From Ruegeria sp. AD91A (lineage in GTDB: Bacteria > Pseudomonadota > Alphaproteobacteria > Rhodobacterales > Rhodobacteraceae), in NCBI RefSeq assembly GCF_003443535.1, contig NZ_CP031947.1, forward strand, positions 434,001-498,000: a stretch of 64,000 nt of DNA. The letters are read 5' to 3'. A model generated the notes under the pieces. It made no database searches, was not told where the DNA came from, and was given only the letters and a program-made list of their open reading frames with translations. The translations under genes and the position numbers were made by a program. Below are positions 26,120 to 35,076 of this stretch, in pieces. Position 1 is the stretch's first letter, and each line of letters begins with the position of its first letter.

Positions 26120-29100
26120 ATGTCCGACTCCAGCAGTGAGCCCCCGCGTATTACGCTGTCCCTTCCGACCTCCCGACCAAATCCCACGATCTCGGCGGAA
26201 ATCTCAGGATCGGCCAGCTTTACAGCTGACAGTGTTGACGATCTCAGACGCGTCGAAGCCGAGAAACTCAAGGCGTTGCGCCGTGGTGTCGGTATCGACC
26301 TGTCCGCCGAAGTAATCAACGATCTGGTCGATCAGCGCGTGCAGGCCACTGGTGCAGTCTTTCGACAGCTCGAAACCATTCGCAAAGATCTGGCCGAGGG
26401 ATTTCTGGGCGCTGTCGTCCCTACCCTTGCCCCGAAACTGCGCGGAGAACTGATCAATCCCGACGGGGCCCCCGCCGAGCGGGTAATCGTTGAAGCGCTG
26501 CGCCCCACCTTTACCGCCAATGAAGGTATCGACAACGCGGATTTTTCCTGGGCTGTAAAAGCCGCCGTTACGGATGCGCGGGGCCTGTTTTCCCTTGATC
26601 TGCCCAACTTGCGGCTGCCGCAAAATGGCCTGAGGTTGCGAATTCGCGGGCAGAACACCACTCTGACTGAAGCGGTGCCGCGCATTGATGCATTGGATGG
26701 CGAACTGGGACTTGTGGTGCTGGATCGCACTGTCCTCCCTTTGCAGCGCTCGGTCCTGGGCGAGCTTGCTGATATTCTACCGGTGGATCCCGAGGATGCG
26801 GAAGAGAACATATCCGATTTCACCGGCACGCAGGCGCCCATCGTGCTGGGCGAAGGTGACTGCGCCTCGGAATACCGGACCGAAGGTGGCACAGTTTCAC
26901 GACGGCGCTATTCGGTTCTCTACCGGTTGATTGATCCGCTGGTCGGGCCGAAAAATATCGTCCGAACCCGCCCTGTTGGCGGCAATCGCTTTGTCACGAC
27001 AATCCCGGGCAGCACTTTTGCGCAGGCCAACCTTTCTGCCGAAACCCTTTTGAACGCTTTCAACAATGACGGCGGAGACTGGGATTTTCGCGACCGGATA
27101 CCAATTGACGAACCCATTGATGTAGAAGATTTCTTCGAAGATCTTGAGCAGCGCCCGCAAGATGTGCCAAAGGCCTCCAGCCTTGCGCTCGGCTACATTG
27201 CCAAGATGCGCTCGACCGCCGTTCACGCCGGTATGTCGTTGGGCCGTCTGGTCTATTCCCTGCCGCTTGCCCCGGGCGAGGAACAGCGGATCGTCGTTTC
27301 GGAACAACGTGAAACCCTGACCGTGCGCGAACGTGAAAGCCTGACGTTCGAGGAACAACAGGAATTCGAAGAAGCGCGCGACACTTCCTTCAACAATACG
27401 TTTGAAACCGCGCTCGATGAAGTGATCCGCGGTACGTCCTCCTTCTCGACCAAGGCGTCTACAAAGAGTTTTGGTGGTGCGGGTGGCATTGGTGGCGGTC
27501 TGTTTGGCGGCATCGGGGCCATAGTTGGCGGGGTCGGCTTCAGCGGAGCGCGCTCCAGTTCCAACTCGTCAGGCAGTTCGTCCAACACGCAGAACACATC
27601 ACGCGATTTTCTGTCAGATACGCATGAGACGTTCTCGGCCGCGCTGGAACGGGCCGCTTCTGTCAAAAGAAACTCTGCCCGAACAAGTGTGCGAACCGCA
27701 ACGGCAAGTGATCGGCGGACGGCGACAACAAAGTTCGTGGCCAACCGCAACCATTGTCATGCAATGACGATGCAATGGTTCGAAGTTCTGCGCGACTTTT
27801 CCCTGGAAACGCGGATCGAAGGGGTGCAATTGGTGGTCTTCGTTCCAATGCAACTCATCCGCTTTCGCCGCCTGGGGCAAGGCGATCAATTGCCGGGCAA
27901 TGTCAACCGGTCCGGGTTGCTGCACCGGTACAAAGTGATCCTGCGCCACGCAGACGTTTTCCGTCGCGTGTTCCGAAACCGTCGCAGATTCCGCACCGCG
28001 CTCAAACTGCTGGAAGAGTTTTATGCCGACAAGGACGCATCTCCGCAAAATGCTCCGGGTGTCGCGCAGGACATCGTCAGTTTTGAGGCTCAGGGCACTT
28101 TTATGCCCAACGATGACATTTCCGCCGTGATCTTCACTCAGGATGGCGACCGCGTCGGACCGGTGCCTCTGACCGGATCGCCGATTGACATCGACAACCT
28201 GCATGACTTGCCTGCCGAGACACGCGAAAACTTGCTGGTTCGGCTGGCTGACGCGCGCCGCGATCCAACGAATCGGCGGACTTATACCGGATCCGTGGCT
28301 TTGCCCCGCTCGGTCGAACGTTCCGACATCGCCCGCGTCGAGTTGCGCAGGCGGACGGGCTCTTTTGCCTACTCATTCTATACCGGCCCCGACCCGATCA
28401 ACATCTTCAACATTTGGGAGCATATCTCAAACCTAGAAGATGCCGATGATCTGGATCGCGCCACGCGCAACATCAACCGGAGCCTTCACACGACGATTTC
28501 GGGTTCGGATTTCGACGATCTGATCGGCGCGCCAATGATCAGCGAGTTTGAGGCGCGCATGAACGAAGACGCACAGACCATCGTTGACGACAACACATTC
28601 CAGGCATTGCCTGCAACCCTGCCCTATTCCGTACAGGAAGTGCCGGACGTGCTGTCGCGTCGTGATCTACGGCGGATCGAAGAAATGTATCAACATATCG
28701 TGGCCGACACCGTTCGCTATTCCCGCGTGATCTGGGCCAGTATGACGGATGAAGAACGCGCCATCCTGCTGGAACGTTTCACGATTGGCGTGCCGGATGG
28801 CGGGTTGGATGACGCTTCAAGCGAGATATCACTGCTCAGCACGGTCCAAAACAAGGTGTTGGGCTTCTACGGCAATGCGATGATCATGCCATTCTCGATC
28901 CCGCCCGATCTGGCCGACAGAATGGAGATGCGGACCGGCGACATTCAGGACAGTCTGCTGGCCTTCCATCGGGAAGACTTCCGACCACCGCGCCGCACGA
29001 TCTCACTGCCGACCAGAGGCCTGTTGGGCGAGGCCGTACTGGGCCGCTGCAATTCCTGCGAGATGATCGACCATCGCCGCTTCTGGAACTGGCAGGACAG

Positions 29101-29833
29101 CCCGACGCCACCTCCGGTTGGTGACACGCCGGTCTTACCCGTGGACAGCGATGCAATCTTTGGCACCCGTGCGCCATCAGACCTGCCGGCCAATCAACCT
29201 TCGAACACGCTCACCATCGCAGGTGGGGACATTGGCACAGGCCAGGCCGTGCCCACTTCGCAACTGGCCGAAATCCTCAAGGCCGCGCCCGATCTCGCGC
29301 GGGCGGGAACCGATCTGACAGGTCTGAAGGAGCTGCAGGCGCAACTGGCACTGGAAACACAATCAGTCGCCGCCGGTCGGGACAAGGCCATAGACACAGC
29401 GACGGATCTGACCAAAGAGCTTGTCGGCAAGGCCACTGAGCTTGCAGGCAAGGGCCAGGAGATCGCTGCGGCCCGCAAAGAGGAAGAAGCCAAGAAACAA
29501 GCTGCCGAAAAGAAAAAGTCAGCTGCCGACAATGCCGTAAAGATCAAGGGGTTTGAAGATATCGCCAAGAACGCCTCCGGTGTTTCTGCGCTGATCGGCG
29601 GACAACCGGGCGGCAACCAAGCGGCCTTTACGCAAAACCTGTTCAAGGATTTCCCCGGCGGTGCTGCCGCTCTGGCGAATCCCTCCAACACGTTGCTTCT
29701 GGCCAAGCTCTTTGGGGCCTTTACCAAAGCGAATACAGATGCGGATGACGGCAGCGCAACCAAGGCCGGCAGCCAGTCCGTTCTGGATTTCCTCAATGGC
29801 CTGAGCGCCCCTGCGGAGGACGACGATGAGTGA
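26120..29833 (+). CDS. large 1237-residue protein of unknown function
   Basis: I do not recognise a characterised family. There is no signal peptide or obvious membrane helix. Residues about 105-195 (LRGELINPDGAPAERVIVEA onward) look like a carboxypeptidase-regulatory-type beta-sandwich. A signature-like SLPLAPGEEQRIVVSEQRE at about 379-397 leads into a charged Glu/Arg-rich helix. A Gly/Ser-rich flexible stretch occupies about 451-500, and a CNSC pair is at 977-980. An Ala/Lys/Glu-rich coiled coil lies at about 1075-1150 near an acidic C-terminus. It overlaps the next gene by 8 bases. The modular build suggests a structural or assembly protein; that is inference. Confidence 0.8.
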   Translation: MSDSSSEPPRITLSLPTSRPNPTISAEISGSASFTADSVDDLRRVEAEKLKALRRGVGIDLSAEVINDLVDQRVQATGAVFRQLETIRKDLAEGFLGAVVPTLAPKLRGELINPDGAPAERVIVEALRPTFTANEGIDNADFSWAVKAAVTDARGLFSLDLPNLRLPQNGLRLRIRGQNTTLTEAVPRIDALDGELGLVVLDRTVLPLQRSVLGELADILPVDPEDAEENISDFTGTQAPIVLGEGDCASEYRTEGGTVSRRRYSVLYRLIDPLVGPKNIVRTRPVGGNRFVTTIPGSTFAQANLSAETLLNAFNNDGGDWDFRDRIPIDEPIDVEDFFEDLEQRPQDVPKASSLALGYIAKMRSTAVHAGMSLGRLVYSLPLAPGEEQRIVVSEQRETLTVRERESLTFEEQQEFEEARDTSFNNTFETALDEVIRGTSSFSTKASTKSFGGAGGIGGGLFGGIGAIVGGVGFSGARSSSNSSGSSSNTQNTSRDFLSDTHETFSAALERAASVKRNSARTSVRTATASDRRTATTKFVANRNHCHAMTMQWFEVLRDFSLETRIEGVQLVVFVPMQLIRFRRLGQGDQLPGNVNRSGLLHRYKVILRHADVFRRVFRNRRRFRTALKLLEEFYADKDASPQNAPGVAQDIVSFEAQGTFMPNDDISAVIFTQDGDRVGPVPLTGSPIDIDNLHDLPAETRENLLVRLADARRDPTNRRTYTGSVALPRSVERSDIARVELRRRTGSFAYSFYTGPDPINIFNIWEHISNLEDADDLDRATRNINRSLHTTISGSDFDDLIGAPMISEFEARMNEDAQTIVDDNTFQALPATLPYSVQEVPDVLSRRDLRRIEEMYQHIVADTVRYSRVIWASMTDEERAILLERFTIGVPDGGLDDASSEISLLSTVQNKVLGFYGNAMIMPFSIPPDLADRMEMRTGDIQDSLLAFHREDFRPPRRTISLPTRGLLGEAVLGRCNSCEMIDHRRFWNWQDSPTPPPVGDTPVLPVDSDAIFGTRAPSDLPANQPSNTLTIAGGDIGTGQAVPTSQLAEILKAAPDLARAGTDLTGLKELQAQLALETQSVAAGRDKAIDTATDLTKELVGKATELAGKGQEIAAARKEEEAKKQAAEKKKSAADNAVKIKGFEDIAKNASGVSALIGGQPGGNQAAFTQNLFKDFPGGAAALANPSNTLLLAKLFGAFTKANTDADDGSATKAGSQSVLDFLNGLSAPAEDDDE

Positions 29834-30824
29834 CACCAGCACAAATGCAACCCCCGAACCCGGTATTGATGAAAGCCTTGCCGAGGCCATCATCAATATT
29901 CTCGAAACCACCAACTCTCCGGCGATACAGCGCGCCCGAGAGGTGATAGCCCACAGACTGGCCATCGCAGGCGACGTTGCCCCATCCCGCATCCCAGCGC
30001 CGCGCAATATCACCGAGATCGGCGGCTACTTAAATCTGCTGAGCGAATATGGAGAGGCCGAACAGCGCTCGCGCATGATCGCGGCCGCTCTGGGCATAGC
30101 AGGGCCGCAGATTTCGCTGCCACAGCCCGGTGCCGTTCCTGCGTTGTCCTTTGTCACACGTGACGGCGCCCGACCTGCGGGGCCACAACAACCCAGCTTC
30201 CCGTTGACCTATACGATCCGCAGCGACTTTGTTCCGGCCTTTGACAATGCTGTGCAGGAAATCACGATCCGTGGTGGCGCGGTTCCGATTTTGACACCCG
30301 TCAGGATTCTGCCTTCCGCGGGGTCTGCGCCCGCAACAGACGGCTCTGCACAGTTGGCTCTGATCGGCCGAACACTCAGCCTGGCGCCAACTGCGGCTTT
30401 ACACGCCGTGGCAACCGATCCCCTGTCGCTAAGCCGCCCGACTGCTGGTGGCGGTTTCGAGGTTTTGGTTCGGGTCATCGACGCCGCCGCTCCGATCGCC
30501 GGAACCATCGCGGCGGCGGACTGGACGAGTTGGGAATGCGATGCCGCAGTCTGTTCCGAGGTCGACAGCAATGATGCGCGCTTTGCGCTCACGCCACTAC
30601 TGAACGCCGCCGGGTGGCACCAGACAGCTGATCCCGGCAATCCGACCAGCCTGTCGAATCCCGGAACCTGGGCAGAATGGCGCAATATCACCGGGCTTGT
30701 GCCGGGCGTCACGCGGTTTGCGGACGAGCTGCAACTGCTTTATTCCGCTGAAATGCTCATTACCTCACCGATCTTCAATCAACTGGACAATGTCTGGACA
30801 GGAAACGAATTTGCCGCACCATAG
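29826..30824 (+). CDS. hypothetical protein coupled to the 1237-residue protein
   Basis: This 332-residue protein begins inside the last codons of the preceding gene (8-base overlap), so the two are translationally coupled and probably work together. An N-terminal helical segment (about 15-100) contains EAIINILETTNSPAIQRAREV. The remainder looks beta-rich, with many Pro, Gly and Ala. Two cysteines lie close together in WECDAAVCSEVDSND (about 237-242). I see no signal peptide, membrane helix or known catalytic motif, and no family I can name. Confidence 0.75.
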   Translation: MSDTSTNATPEPGIDESLAEAIINILETTNSPAIQRAREVIAHRLAIAGDVAPSRIPAPRNITEIGGYLNLLSEYGEAEQRSRMIAAALGIAGPQISLPQPGAVPALSFVTRDGARPAGPQQPSFPLTYTIRSDFVPAFDNAVQEITIRGGAVPILTPVRILPSAGSAPATDGSAQLALIGRTLSLAPTAALHAVATDPLSLSRPTAGGGFEVLVRVIDAAAPIAGTIAAADWTSWECDAAVCSEVDSNDARFALTPLLNAAGWHQTADPGNPTSLSNPGTWAEWRNITGLVPGVTRFADELQLLYSAEMLITSPIFNQLDNVWTGNEFAAP

Positions 30825-30900
30825 CGCGGCTGCTTGAAACGCATGAAAGTGATTTGGCAAGACTCCCTTCAAGGGGTTTAATGCAATCAGGAGGTCAGCC

Positions 30901-31113
30901 ATGCAAAACCCGGAGCGTTTCGAGAAGTTCTATTTCGCCAAAGTCGGCATGGGCGAAGCCTGTGGCTGCGCCGAGCGGGTAATCGACGTGTTCGAATTCA
31001 ATCGCAAAGGCGGTGCGCAATCCAAACAACCTGTGAAACAGGACAGGCGCAGACGCGGATCCTTTCGGGCATGGGCTGTCAGATATGGGCTGATGAGCCG
31101 AAAGCGGACATAA
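30901..31113 (+). CDS. small basic hypothetical protein (70 residues)
   Basis: A near-perfect AGGAGGT site five bases before the ATG supports this short gene. The N-terminal half is mixed and carries a CGC motif (about residues 21-23) next to RVIDVFEFNRKGG. The C-terminal half is strongly basic, with DRRRRGSFRAWAVRYGLMSRKRT. It lies 76 bases after the 332-residue protein on the same strand and may belong to the same transcript. The function is unknown; the basic tail could bind nucleic acid or an acidic partner such as the tail of the 1237-residue protein. Confidence 0.6.
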   Translation: MQNPERFEKFYFAKVGMGEACGCAERVIDVFEFNRKGGAQSKQPVKQDRRRRGSFRAWAVRYGLMSRKRT

Positions 31114-34619: not shown

Positions 34620-34765
34620 GAACAGTCGTCCTTGTCCCGTCGCGCCAATCCCGGTGCGAAATTCACTTTGACTGCGGGACATCCAACGCCAAATTGCCCT
34701 TTCAGGCATCCTGGTCCGACGCACATCCCGTCGCCGATGAGGAGCGCCCCTTATGGGGGCACATG

Positions 34766-34935
34766 CCCGGCAGGTATCCTGACTTGCGGGTCAAAGCGTC
34801 GGACTGGCCTTCCCGGGAAAACCCCAGTGGCGTTTCAGCCCTGCTCGCCGCTTACAGTTGCGGGTGCAGTTGCGGAATTGGGCCTGAGCCCGCACCGCAT
34901 TCCCTATTGATTCCAGAGCGCGCCCCGGAACCGGA
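34766..34935 (-). ncRNA. cobalamin (AdoCbl) riboswitch
   Basis: Read on the minus strand, the leader contains the ordered conserved blocks of this riboswitch: GGTTCCGG, GGGAATGCGGTG, CCGCAACTGTAAGCGG, GCCACTGG, CGGGAAGGC, and the B12 box AGTCAGGATACCTGCC at 34768-34783. A GCCCC/GGGGC hairpin follows at about 34744-34757. The leader precedes the DUF4198-cbiM operon and explains cobalt uptake control: high cobalamin should lower expression. The hairpin has no T-run, so control of translation or Rho access may be more likely than intrinsic termination. The remaining 34620-34743 and 34936-35076 show no gene. Confidence 0.95.
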
Positions 34936-35076
34936 CATGTCCAGCGGCTTGCCAGACAATCCCAGTCTCCGTCAACGATCAATTGTGATGGCGGTCAAAA
35001 AAGTTATGAGCCTGGGAAGTCTGGTGTGGTTTGACGTGCTTTGGTAAGCATCAGTGGAAGAAGGGGAAATACACTT

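What the first reader, a model, noticed from the sequence alone, without database searches (positions are those of the whole stretch)
26120..31113. Uncharacterised three-gene module with a 1237-residue modular protein
The large protein combines a carboxypeptidase-regulatory-like sandwich, an unusual LPLAPGEEQRIVVSEQRE segment running into a charged helix, a Gly/Ser-rich linker, a Cys-x2-Cys pair and a C-terminal coiled coil. It is translationally coupled (8-base overlap) to a 332-residue protein and followed by a 70-residue basic protein with a near-perfect ribosome binding site. None has a signal peptide or a recognisable catalytic motif. The set looks like a dedicated assembly of unknown purpose.
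Basis: partly seen in the sequence, partly recalled or inferred. Interest (0 to 1): 0.72.

Follow-up and report, generated by a model that had tools for sequence, protein, structure and literature searches.

The report
Undescribed two-gene pair, bacteria and archaea
Two neighbouring genes, one very large and one small, travel together through many bacteria and a few archaea, sometimes with cell-wall-cutting enzymes beside them, so they may be an undescribed weapon or carrier system.

Summary
The three open reading frames are real and lie where stated, but the module has two genes, not three. The 70-residue gene (C) occurs in 42 of 54 genomes of the genus, the large gene (A) in full length in only 5 of 54. 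A and B (332 residues) form a pair. B lies downstream of A, same strand, in all 67 assessable loci of 79; in the other 12, A runs to, or ends within about 460 bases of, the contig end. The pair carries 14 phylum-level labels including archaea, is rare in every group sampled, and has interleaved phyla in its tree. It has no Pfam, NCBIfam, PHROG or PADLOC match and no convincing PDB-sequence match. A has a variable N-terminal part (LRR, Ig-like, DUF4332 in relatives) and a conserved core: charged stretch, glycine-rich hydrophobic tip, charged stretch, then an RFWNWxDS motif. In 5 relatives enzyme genes sit between A and B (amidases, NlpC/P60-like, papain-like), and an archaeal protein with the same core carries a C-terminal papain-like DUF2272. 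Best reading: a laterally mobile carrier or pore module delivering cell-wall-degrading cargo. The pairing is shown; the mechanism is inferred. Structure prediction could not be run.

The parts
26120..29833 (+). gene A, 1237 aa, large modular protein
   Evidence: open frame; 254 homologues at E<=1e-3 among 8000 scored candidates, 120 listed; 125 related stretches in GTDB contigs, 79 loci kept
26120..27094 (+). variable N-terminal part of A (residues 1-325); in relatives this part holds DUF4332/HHH, Big_2, LRR or a weak CarboxypepD_reg match
27260..27280 (+). LPLAPGE motif (residues 381-387) near the start of the conserved core
   Evidence: L381 in 67, L383 and A384 in 68, P385, G386, E387 in 69 of 69 cores
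27281..27742 (+). charged stretch (388-437), Gly-rich uncharged hydrophobic tip (438-500), second charged stretch (500-541): proposed membrane-seeking helical hairpin
   Evidence: segment composition in 48 relatives; secondary structure inferred, not predicted
27743..27793 (+). NxNxCHxxTxQxxxVLR stretch after the hairpin (residues 542-558)
   Evidence: N542, N544, T550, Q552 in 69 of 69 cores; similar stretch in the wider superfamily
29048..29104 (+). CNSCEMIDHRRFWNWQDSP motif (residues 977-995)
   Evidence: E981 in 69, I983, D984, R987, F988, W989, W991, D993 in 68, N990 and S994 in 65 of 69 cores; CxxC only in 26 of 48
29105..29830 (+). C-terminal tail of A, rich in Ala, Lys, Glu; in a haloarchaeal relative the region after the core ends in a DUF2272 domain
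   Evidence: sequence
29826..30824 (+). gene B, 332 aa, partner of A (8-base overlap)
29826..30110 (+). B core domain (about residues 1-95, signature SRIPAPxNITEIGGYxNLL); in short-form loci this domain is most or all of the protein
30111..30821 (+). C-terminal domain of long-form B (about 235 aa), function unknown
30901..31113 (+). gene C, 70 aa: NOT part of the module, a common gene of the genus
   Evidence: 42 of 54 genomes, against 5 of 54 for full-length A

Best explanation
A and B are a laterally transferred two-gene carrier module. A is a large protein made without a visible export signal. Its variable N-terminal part would recognise a partner or target, and its conserved core would place a long charged helical hairpin with a glycine-rich, uncharged hydrophobic tip against or into a membrane, making a pore or dock. 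B is a small constant partner whose 90-residue core domain binds A and completes the assembly. In some relatives separate lytic enzymes (amidase, NlpC/P60-like, papain-like, perhaps phospholipase-like DUF6765 and proteases), or a domain fused to the end of A, would be the cargo; the likely purpose is antagonism of other microbes. In the window no separate cargo gene is present, so the 235-residue C-terminal domain of B, or the tail of A, would have to fill that place, or the pair acts as a pore alone. Shown: the pair, its core domains, its spread, and the enzyme genes beside or fused to it in some relatives. Inferred: secondary structure, membrane insertion, delivery, target, and any binding between A and B.
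For: Pairing: B downstream on the same strand in 67 of 67 assessable loci out of 79, its domain starting within 460 bases of the end of the A frame in 61 of them. Correlated divergence of A core and B domain: r=0.592, largest of 2000 permutations 0.147, 69 loci. Enzyme genes between A and B in 5 loci (L058, L063, L083, L087, L122): of 9 such genes, 3 Amidase_2 and 1 papain-like C70 pass Pfam cut-offs, 1 is a sub-threshold NlpC/P60 and 2 are related to it by BLASTP within a set of 13 sequences, 2 have no match. A wider-family member of Haladaptatus has a C-terminal DUF2272 above cut-off, 57.2 bits against 27; PMC10318531 (passages) places DUF2272 in the NlpC/P60-CHAP-amidase group and names Tse1, an amidase sent into competitors. 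Further neighbours: neprosin in 2 loci, DUF6765 in 2, transglutaminase-like at the cut-off in 1, GH108 in 1 (L072 for the second DUF6765 and L084 for GH108 are my assignment from the tally). The Gly-rich segment between charged stretches recurs in A, and a Gly/Ser-rich one in the wider superfamily. Extracellular-type domains (Big_2, LRR, OmpA, Tectonin) are fused to relatives. Patchy occurrence and interleaved phyla.
Against: No structure could be computed. The window has no cargo gene: its neighbours are a response regulator, a DUF2520 protein and a cobalt transporter. No immunity gene and no export route were identified, and no systematic search for either was made. Only 5 loci have genes between A and B, and many other neighbours are plain housekeeping genes (prephenate dehydratase, PmbA, cation efflux); no background rate was computed. 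The shared N-terminal motif of the cargo genes is weak: leave-one-out E 0.01 to 4 for four of seven, the other three not recovered; held-out L122 proteins rank 8 and 10 of 1037 at E 0.54 and 2.7. The tip is the most hydrophobic window in only 20 of 48 relatives, so it may be a plain flexible loop.
Confidence: 0.36

Rival explanations
1. A-B is a surface or envelope complex (adhesin or wall-remodelling scaffold) of the cell that makes it; the amidases and peptidases remodel the cell's own envelope.
For: Psychrobacter relative annotated as OmpA family (OmpA in 1 of 30), Big_2/LRR/Tectonin domains, an L,D-transpeptidase-like gene directly upstream of one wider-superfamily member and a VanY-like gene about 2 kb from another (my reading of the sequences).
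Against: No visible signal peptide in A; presence in archaea, which lack peptidoglycan (recalled), with a DUF2272 fusion in one relative; very patchy distribution within a genus, 5 of 54.
Confidence: 0.2
2. A-B is an intracellular assembly (scaffold, compartment or stress complex) and the lytic genes beside it in some relatives are incidental.
For: No visible export signal; many loci, the window included, have no recognised lytic neighbour; DUF4332 in 22 of 31 N-terminal parts.
Against: Enzyme genes between A and B in five loci of three phyla, and a direct fusion in a wider-family member; extracellular-type domains in relatives.
Confidence: 0.2
3. A is an effector or tip protein delivered by a contractile system (T6SS or eCIS).
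For: Effector-like enzyme repertoire and modular N-termini in relatives.
Against: No VipB and no Phage_sheath_1 match in the own genome (these two sheath families only); present in Actinomycetota, Bacillota and archaea; A and B have no match in PHROGs, and A none in phage records or IMG/VR.
Confidence: 0.07
4. A-B is an anti-phage defence or toxin-antitoxin pair.
For: Two overlapping genes, patchy spread; TIR, Fic, PIN or toxin-antitoxin genes within several kb of some wider-family members and of the pair on a Novosphingobium plasmid.
Against: No PADLOC match for A, B or C (weak hits at E 0.0049 and 0.022 in two relatives); A is far larger than usual toxins; the recognised genes between A and B are wall or peptide hydrolases, not nucleic-acid enzymes.
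Confidence: 0.1

Closest known systems
Polymorphic toxin systems and interbacterial effector repertoires (Amidase_2, NlpC/P60, papain-like, DUF2272/Tse1 group)
   Same: The same kinds of lytic enzymes appear as separate genes or as a C-terminal fusion, attached to a conserved large protein with variable recognition-like domains.
   Different: Core not matched to any named family; constant small partner B; no immunity genes found (not searched systematically); window copy carries no enzyme.
Helical pore-forming toxins with long stalks and a hydrophobic tip (recalled as a class; no call compares folds)
   Same: Inferred: charged helix, uncharged hydrophobic tip, charged helix.
   Different: No convincing sequence match to a solved structure; fold not tested.
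CarboxypepD_reg (PF13620)
   Same: Weak match in 2 of 30 relatives.
   Different: No match in the window protein.
DUF4332 (PF14229) and helix-hairpin-helix domains
   Same: DUF4332 in 22 of 31 N-terminal parts examined.
   Different: Not found in the window protein; one unrelated paper mentions DUF4332 (listing).

Membership tests
Polymorphic toxin system | Conserved carrier with exchangeable toxic enzyme domains or genes | tested here: inconclusive
   Enzyme genes between A and B in 5 loci, one C-terminal DUF2272 fusion in the wider family; none recognised in the window
Polymorphic toxin system | Adjacent immunity gene | not tested
   No systematic search for immunity genes was made; none recognised in the neighbourhoods read
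T6SS or eCIS effector | Contractile sheath genes in the same genome | tested here: not met
   PF05943 and PF04984: 0 of 1 own genome each; other sheath families not searched
Helical pore-forming toxin | Alpha-helical bundle fold with hydrophobic head | not testable with these tools
CarboxypepD_reg domain protein | Pfam match above gathering score | tested here: not met
   0 families in A at E<=1
Anti-phage defence system (PADLOC-DB 2.0.0) | Match to a PADLOC model | tested here: not met
   0 families for A, B and C at E<=0.1
Phage or prophage structural protein | Match to PHROGs, phage records or viral contigs | tested here: not met
   PHROGs: A, B, C none; A in phage records and viral contigs: none; B was not searched in phage records or viral contigs
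Three-gene module A-B-C as proposed | C co-occurs with A and B | tested here: not met
   C in 42 of 54 genomes, A in 6 of 54 (5 full length)

The most novel reading that the evidence does not exclude
A-B is the core of an undescribed, interdomain, two-component delivery machine: A forms a membrane-penetrating stalk, B is its universal adaptor, and cargo enzymes dock through a short N-terminal domain or are fused to A; bacteria and archaea alike use it against other cells, without any contractile or Sec-type apparatus.
Probability: 0.2. Interest if true: 0.93.

Novelty: new variant of a known kind. Interest (0 to 1): 0.66.

Why it matters
A constant gene pair that crosses 14 phylum-level groups and two domains of life, yet matches no model of Pfam, NCBIfam, PHROGs or PADLOC, is a sizeable blank on the map. 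If it delivers wall-cutting enzymes it would be a compact weapon shared by bacteria and archaea, and the short B domain with its nearly invariant signature offers a simple handle for finding and testing members.

Tried and rejected
C as third member: rejected. CxxC as a zinc site: not conserved. Phage or prophage origin: no match for A. T6SS or contractile delivery in this genome: no match to two sheath families. Remote matches to solved structures by profile: A2 best E 0.098, B profile best E 0.027, wider profile A5 best E 0.0026 and that only in the Ala/Lys/Glu-rich tail; none taken as real. A common docking domain at the start of the cargo genes: looked for, only weakly supported. An antisense ORF cluster seen in 12 loci (cluster 1) overlaps the place of B and I take it as an artefact of greedy ORF picking. 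Empty-site comparison: G076, G207, G226 and G227 carry the cobalt operon without A, B, C or DUF2520 beside it, so no exact insertion point was defined. Papers: the listings of searches (0 papers; 1; 143, 20 listed; 13; 0; 2; 17, 8 listed) showed no paper on this family; only PMC10318531 (passages) and PMC12352652 (start of abstract in the listing; a term search gave no passages) were opened further. The library holds open-licence PMC papers only.

An earlier count said B was found in 68 of 79 loci; the recount is 67 of 79, with 12 lacking it at contig ends.
Full report
Anatomy. The window lies at G000:C2:434001-498000, a genome of 4.4 Mb whose A protein is 98% identical to a 'hypothetical protein' of Ruegeria atlantica. 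A (26120-29833), B (29826-30824) and C (30901-31113) are open frames as described; A and B overlap by 8 bases and C has an AGGAGG site. Flanks: a LuxR-type response regulator and a DUF2520 protein upstream, and, as annotated in the near-identical Ruegeria sp. THAF33 record, a cobalt ECF transporter on the other strand downstream. GC and third-position GC of A (0.586, 0.660) and B (0.608, 0.642) are close to those of the neighbours, so a recent foreign origin does not show in composition.

What it is not. A, B and C have no NCBIfam, PHROG or PADLOC match at E<=0.1; A and B have no Pfam match at E<=1, and C only one at E 0.26, far below cut-off. Sequence and profile searches of solved structures gave nothing convincing: best E 0.33 for A, 0.098 for the A2 profile, 0.027 for the B profile, and 0.0026 for the wider A5 profile, the last in the low-complexity-like tail. 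Viral contigs were scanned with A and with alignment A1, phage records with A and with the core of a distant relative: no relatives; B was not searched there.

Two genes, not three. In 54 genomes of the genus, A matches in 6, 5 of them full length at 94% or more including the own genome, while C matches in 42. In the four other genomes with full-length A, C also follows B (coordinates; order), but it is clearly independent of the pair. A-B is rare in every group sampled: at order level 7 of 196 genomes match, 2 of them full length; in the phylum 4 of 398, where only the own genome has the full protein and three have the wider core; in the family of a Butyrivibrio member 1 of 397, the member itself; in the order of a Porphyromonas member 4 of 393, the member itself included and one of the four weak.

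A constant pair. The scan of species-representative genomes found 125 related stretches, of which 79 distinct loci were kept. An iterated profile of B found it downstream of A on the same strand in 67 of 79. In each of the other 12 (L020, L023, L038, L045, L048, L067, L069, L076, L077, L080, L086, L088) A runs to the contig end or ends within about 460 bases of it (with the contig data). The start of the B domain lies within 460 bases of the end of the A frame in 61 of 67; of the other six, four have genes between (L058, L063, L083, L087), in one the A frame is broken (L033) and in one B seems to have a long N-terminal extension (L073, not resolved). This tests the pairing from A's side; from B's side only plasmids were tested, where B is in 3 records, all of which also hold A. 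Distances on the A-core and B-domain trees correlate (r=0.592; largest of 2000 permutations 0.147; 69 loci, of which L003 and L011 are the same place in one genome); shared ancestry adds to this, so it is support, not proof, of co-evolution. The tree of 68 A cores carries 14 phylum-level labels, two of its rows archaeal, and needs 27 label changes where 13 is the least and shuffled labels average 42.7. For example the Methanosarcinales locus groups with a Bacteroidales one (support 89) and the Gammaproteobacterium Aggregatibacter sits in a fork (support 90) with Porphyromonas, Fibrobacter and Bacillota. Labels follow the submitters' titles, many of them of metagenome bins; the tool warns that mis-binned contigs and paralogues can mimic transfer. 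The archaeal locus L062 does sit among genes that I read as archaeal from their sequences, without a family search.

Domains. A core (profile 326-1100, about 770 positions) is found in the 79 loci as far as contigs and frames reach; the N-terminal part changes. In 31 N-terminal parts (29 from 28 loci of the Bacteroidota/Bacillota/Fibrobacter type between L054 and L087, 2 from Actinomycetota) DUF4332 is found in 22, Big_2 in 3, LRR_4 in 2. In 30 further relatives: HHH_3 in 2, CarboxypepD_reg in 2 (weak), OmpA in 1. In 69 of 69 cores the window's residue is kept at G375, Y379, P385, G386, E387, N542, N544, T550, Q552, R603, G915, G918, N919, P924, F925, P928, G967, E971 and E981, and the letters R, F, W, N, W, D, S of RFWNWQDS in 65-68. 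Between two charged stretches lies a Gly-rich segment: in the window protein its maximum (GIGGGLFGGIGAIVGGVGF, mean hydropathy 1.53) is the most hydrophobic 19-residue window of the whole protein, but this holds in only 20 of 48 relatives, and the segment overlaps the longest uncharged run in 25 of 48. A similar arrangement, with LGxxxYS, a Gly/Ser-rich middle and NxNxxH, is seen in 440-520 residue proteins of other Rhodobacteraceae and in large proteins of Polaromonas, Psychrobacter, Nostoc and Streptomyces, so there is a wider superfamily; 0 of 11 such loci had B at E<=1e-3 (best E 0.03). The Haladaptatus and Caballeronia loci were not tested for B. B is a short protein of about 85-180 residues in the Bacteroidota/Bacillota/Fibrobacter type loci L058 to L087 that hold it, and about 310-350 residues in most others, or about 412 with a TIG domain (PF01833, precomputed).

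Neighbouring enzymes. In five loci of three phyla genes lie between A and B: four of the 67 above and L122, fetched later from a Bacteroidales genome. Of these nine genes, three are Amidase_2 and one is papain-like C70 above Pfam cut-off; one is NlpC/P60 below cut-off (20.0 bits against 23) and two are related to it (BLASTP 1.7e-27 and 6.3e-6 within a set of 13 sequences; one of these has only a weak unrelated Pfam hit and the other none); two have no match. Beside the pair in others: Amidase_2 in L072, DUF6765 in L058 and, by my reading of the tally, L072, a transglutaminase-like protein at the cut-off in L085, Glyco_hydro_108 (by my reading of the tally L084), and neprosin upstream of A in a Nitrospira and on a Novosphingobium plasmid, 59% identical to each other. 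Against this, many neighbours are ordinary housekeeping genes: of 87 neighbours listed by script I hand-picked 29 and added one, and these 30 hit 61 families; of the 25 shown, 23 were hit by one member only. No background rate was computed. In the haloarchaeon Haladaptatus sp. QDMS2 a member of the wider superfamily carries a C-terminal DUF2272 (residues 1149-1321, 57.2 bits, cut-off 27). PMC10318531 (passages) groups DUF2272 with NlpC/P60, CHAP and amidases and notes a possible role as an amidase sent into competitors. That archaea can make peptidoglycan hydrolases that kill bacteria is the title claim of PMC12352652 (listing; my term search found no mention of DUF2272 there).

Mechanism. Putting these together I favour a carrier: A as the large recognition and membrane-contact part, B as constant adaptor, lytic enzymes as cargo where present. 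The own genome has no match to two contractile sheath families, and the pair occurs in Actinomycetota, Bacillota and archaea, so a contractile machine is unlikely to be the vehicle. The weak points are plain: no structure, no immunity genes or export route recognised, no cargo in the window, and only a weak shared motif at the start of the cargo genes (leave-one-out E 0.01 to 4 for four of seven, three not recovered; held-out proteins at E 0.54 and 2.7, rank 8 and 10 of 1037; one pair at BLASTP E 0.001 in a set of 13).

Novelty. Among the rows listed (120 of 254 for A, 120 of 188 for B) the names given were 'hypothetical' or 'uncharacterized protein', apart from one UniRef name ('ATPase involved in DNA repair', perhaps drawn from the tail), one 'uncharacterized membrane protein YgcG' and one 'carboxypeptidase-like regulatory domain-containing protein'. 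Literature searches showed nothing on the family in their listings. If the best explanation holds it is a new variant of known antagonistic toxin-carrier systems; if the novel reading holds it is a new kind.

Noticed in passing
window 34752-34950 (-): Cobalamin riboswitch (RF00174, 126 bits) upstream of the cobalt ECF transporter operon.
   Followed up: no
L124:7272-11345 (Haladaptatus plasmid): Archaeal 1357-aa protein with the A-type core and a C-terminal DUF2272 (papain-like) domain; a direct lead on cargo.
   Followed up: partly
L014:3-7040 (Ruegeria spongiae): Upstream of A: two proteins of 407 and 490 aa that look like paralogues by eye and a 961-aa Trypsin_2 protein that also holds an HEIGH-type metalloprotease motif by eye; a possible effector cluster.
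   Followed up: partly
L005-L007, L095-L097: 440-520 aa proteins of other Rhodobacteraceae with the same hairpin block and a CxxCE motif; an L,D-transpeptidase-like gene lies directly upstream in L096 and an H-lectin-like gene beside the one in L097 (my reading); an unnamed smaller branch of the superfamily.
   Followed up: partly
L037:8558-9823, L093:6546-7835: Bacterial neprosin proteases, 59% identical, directly upstream of A in Nitrospira and on a Novosphingobium plasmid.
   Followed up: no
L062:6875-18782: Methanosarcinales locus with two tandem A genes carrying LRR and Big_2 domains before a single B.
   Followed up: no
window 30901-31113: C, the 70-residue basic protein, is a widespread uncharacterised gene of the genus (42 of 54 genomes) with no family match above cut-off.
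   Followed up: partly
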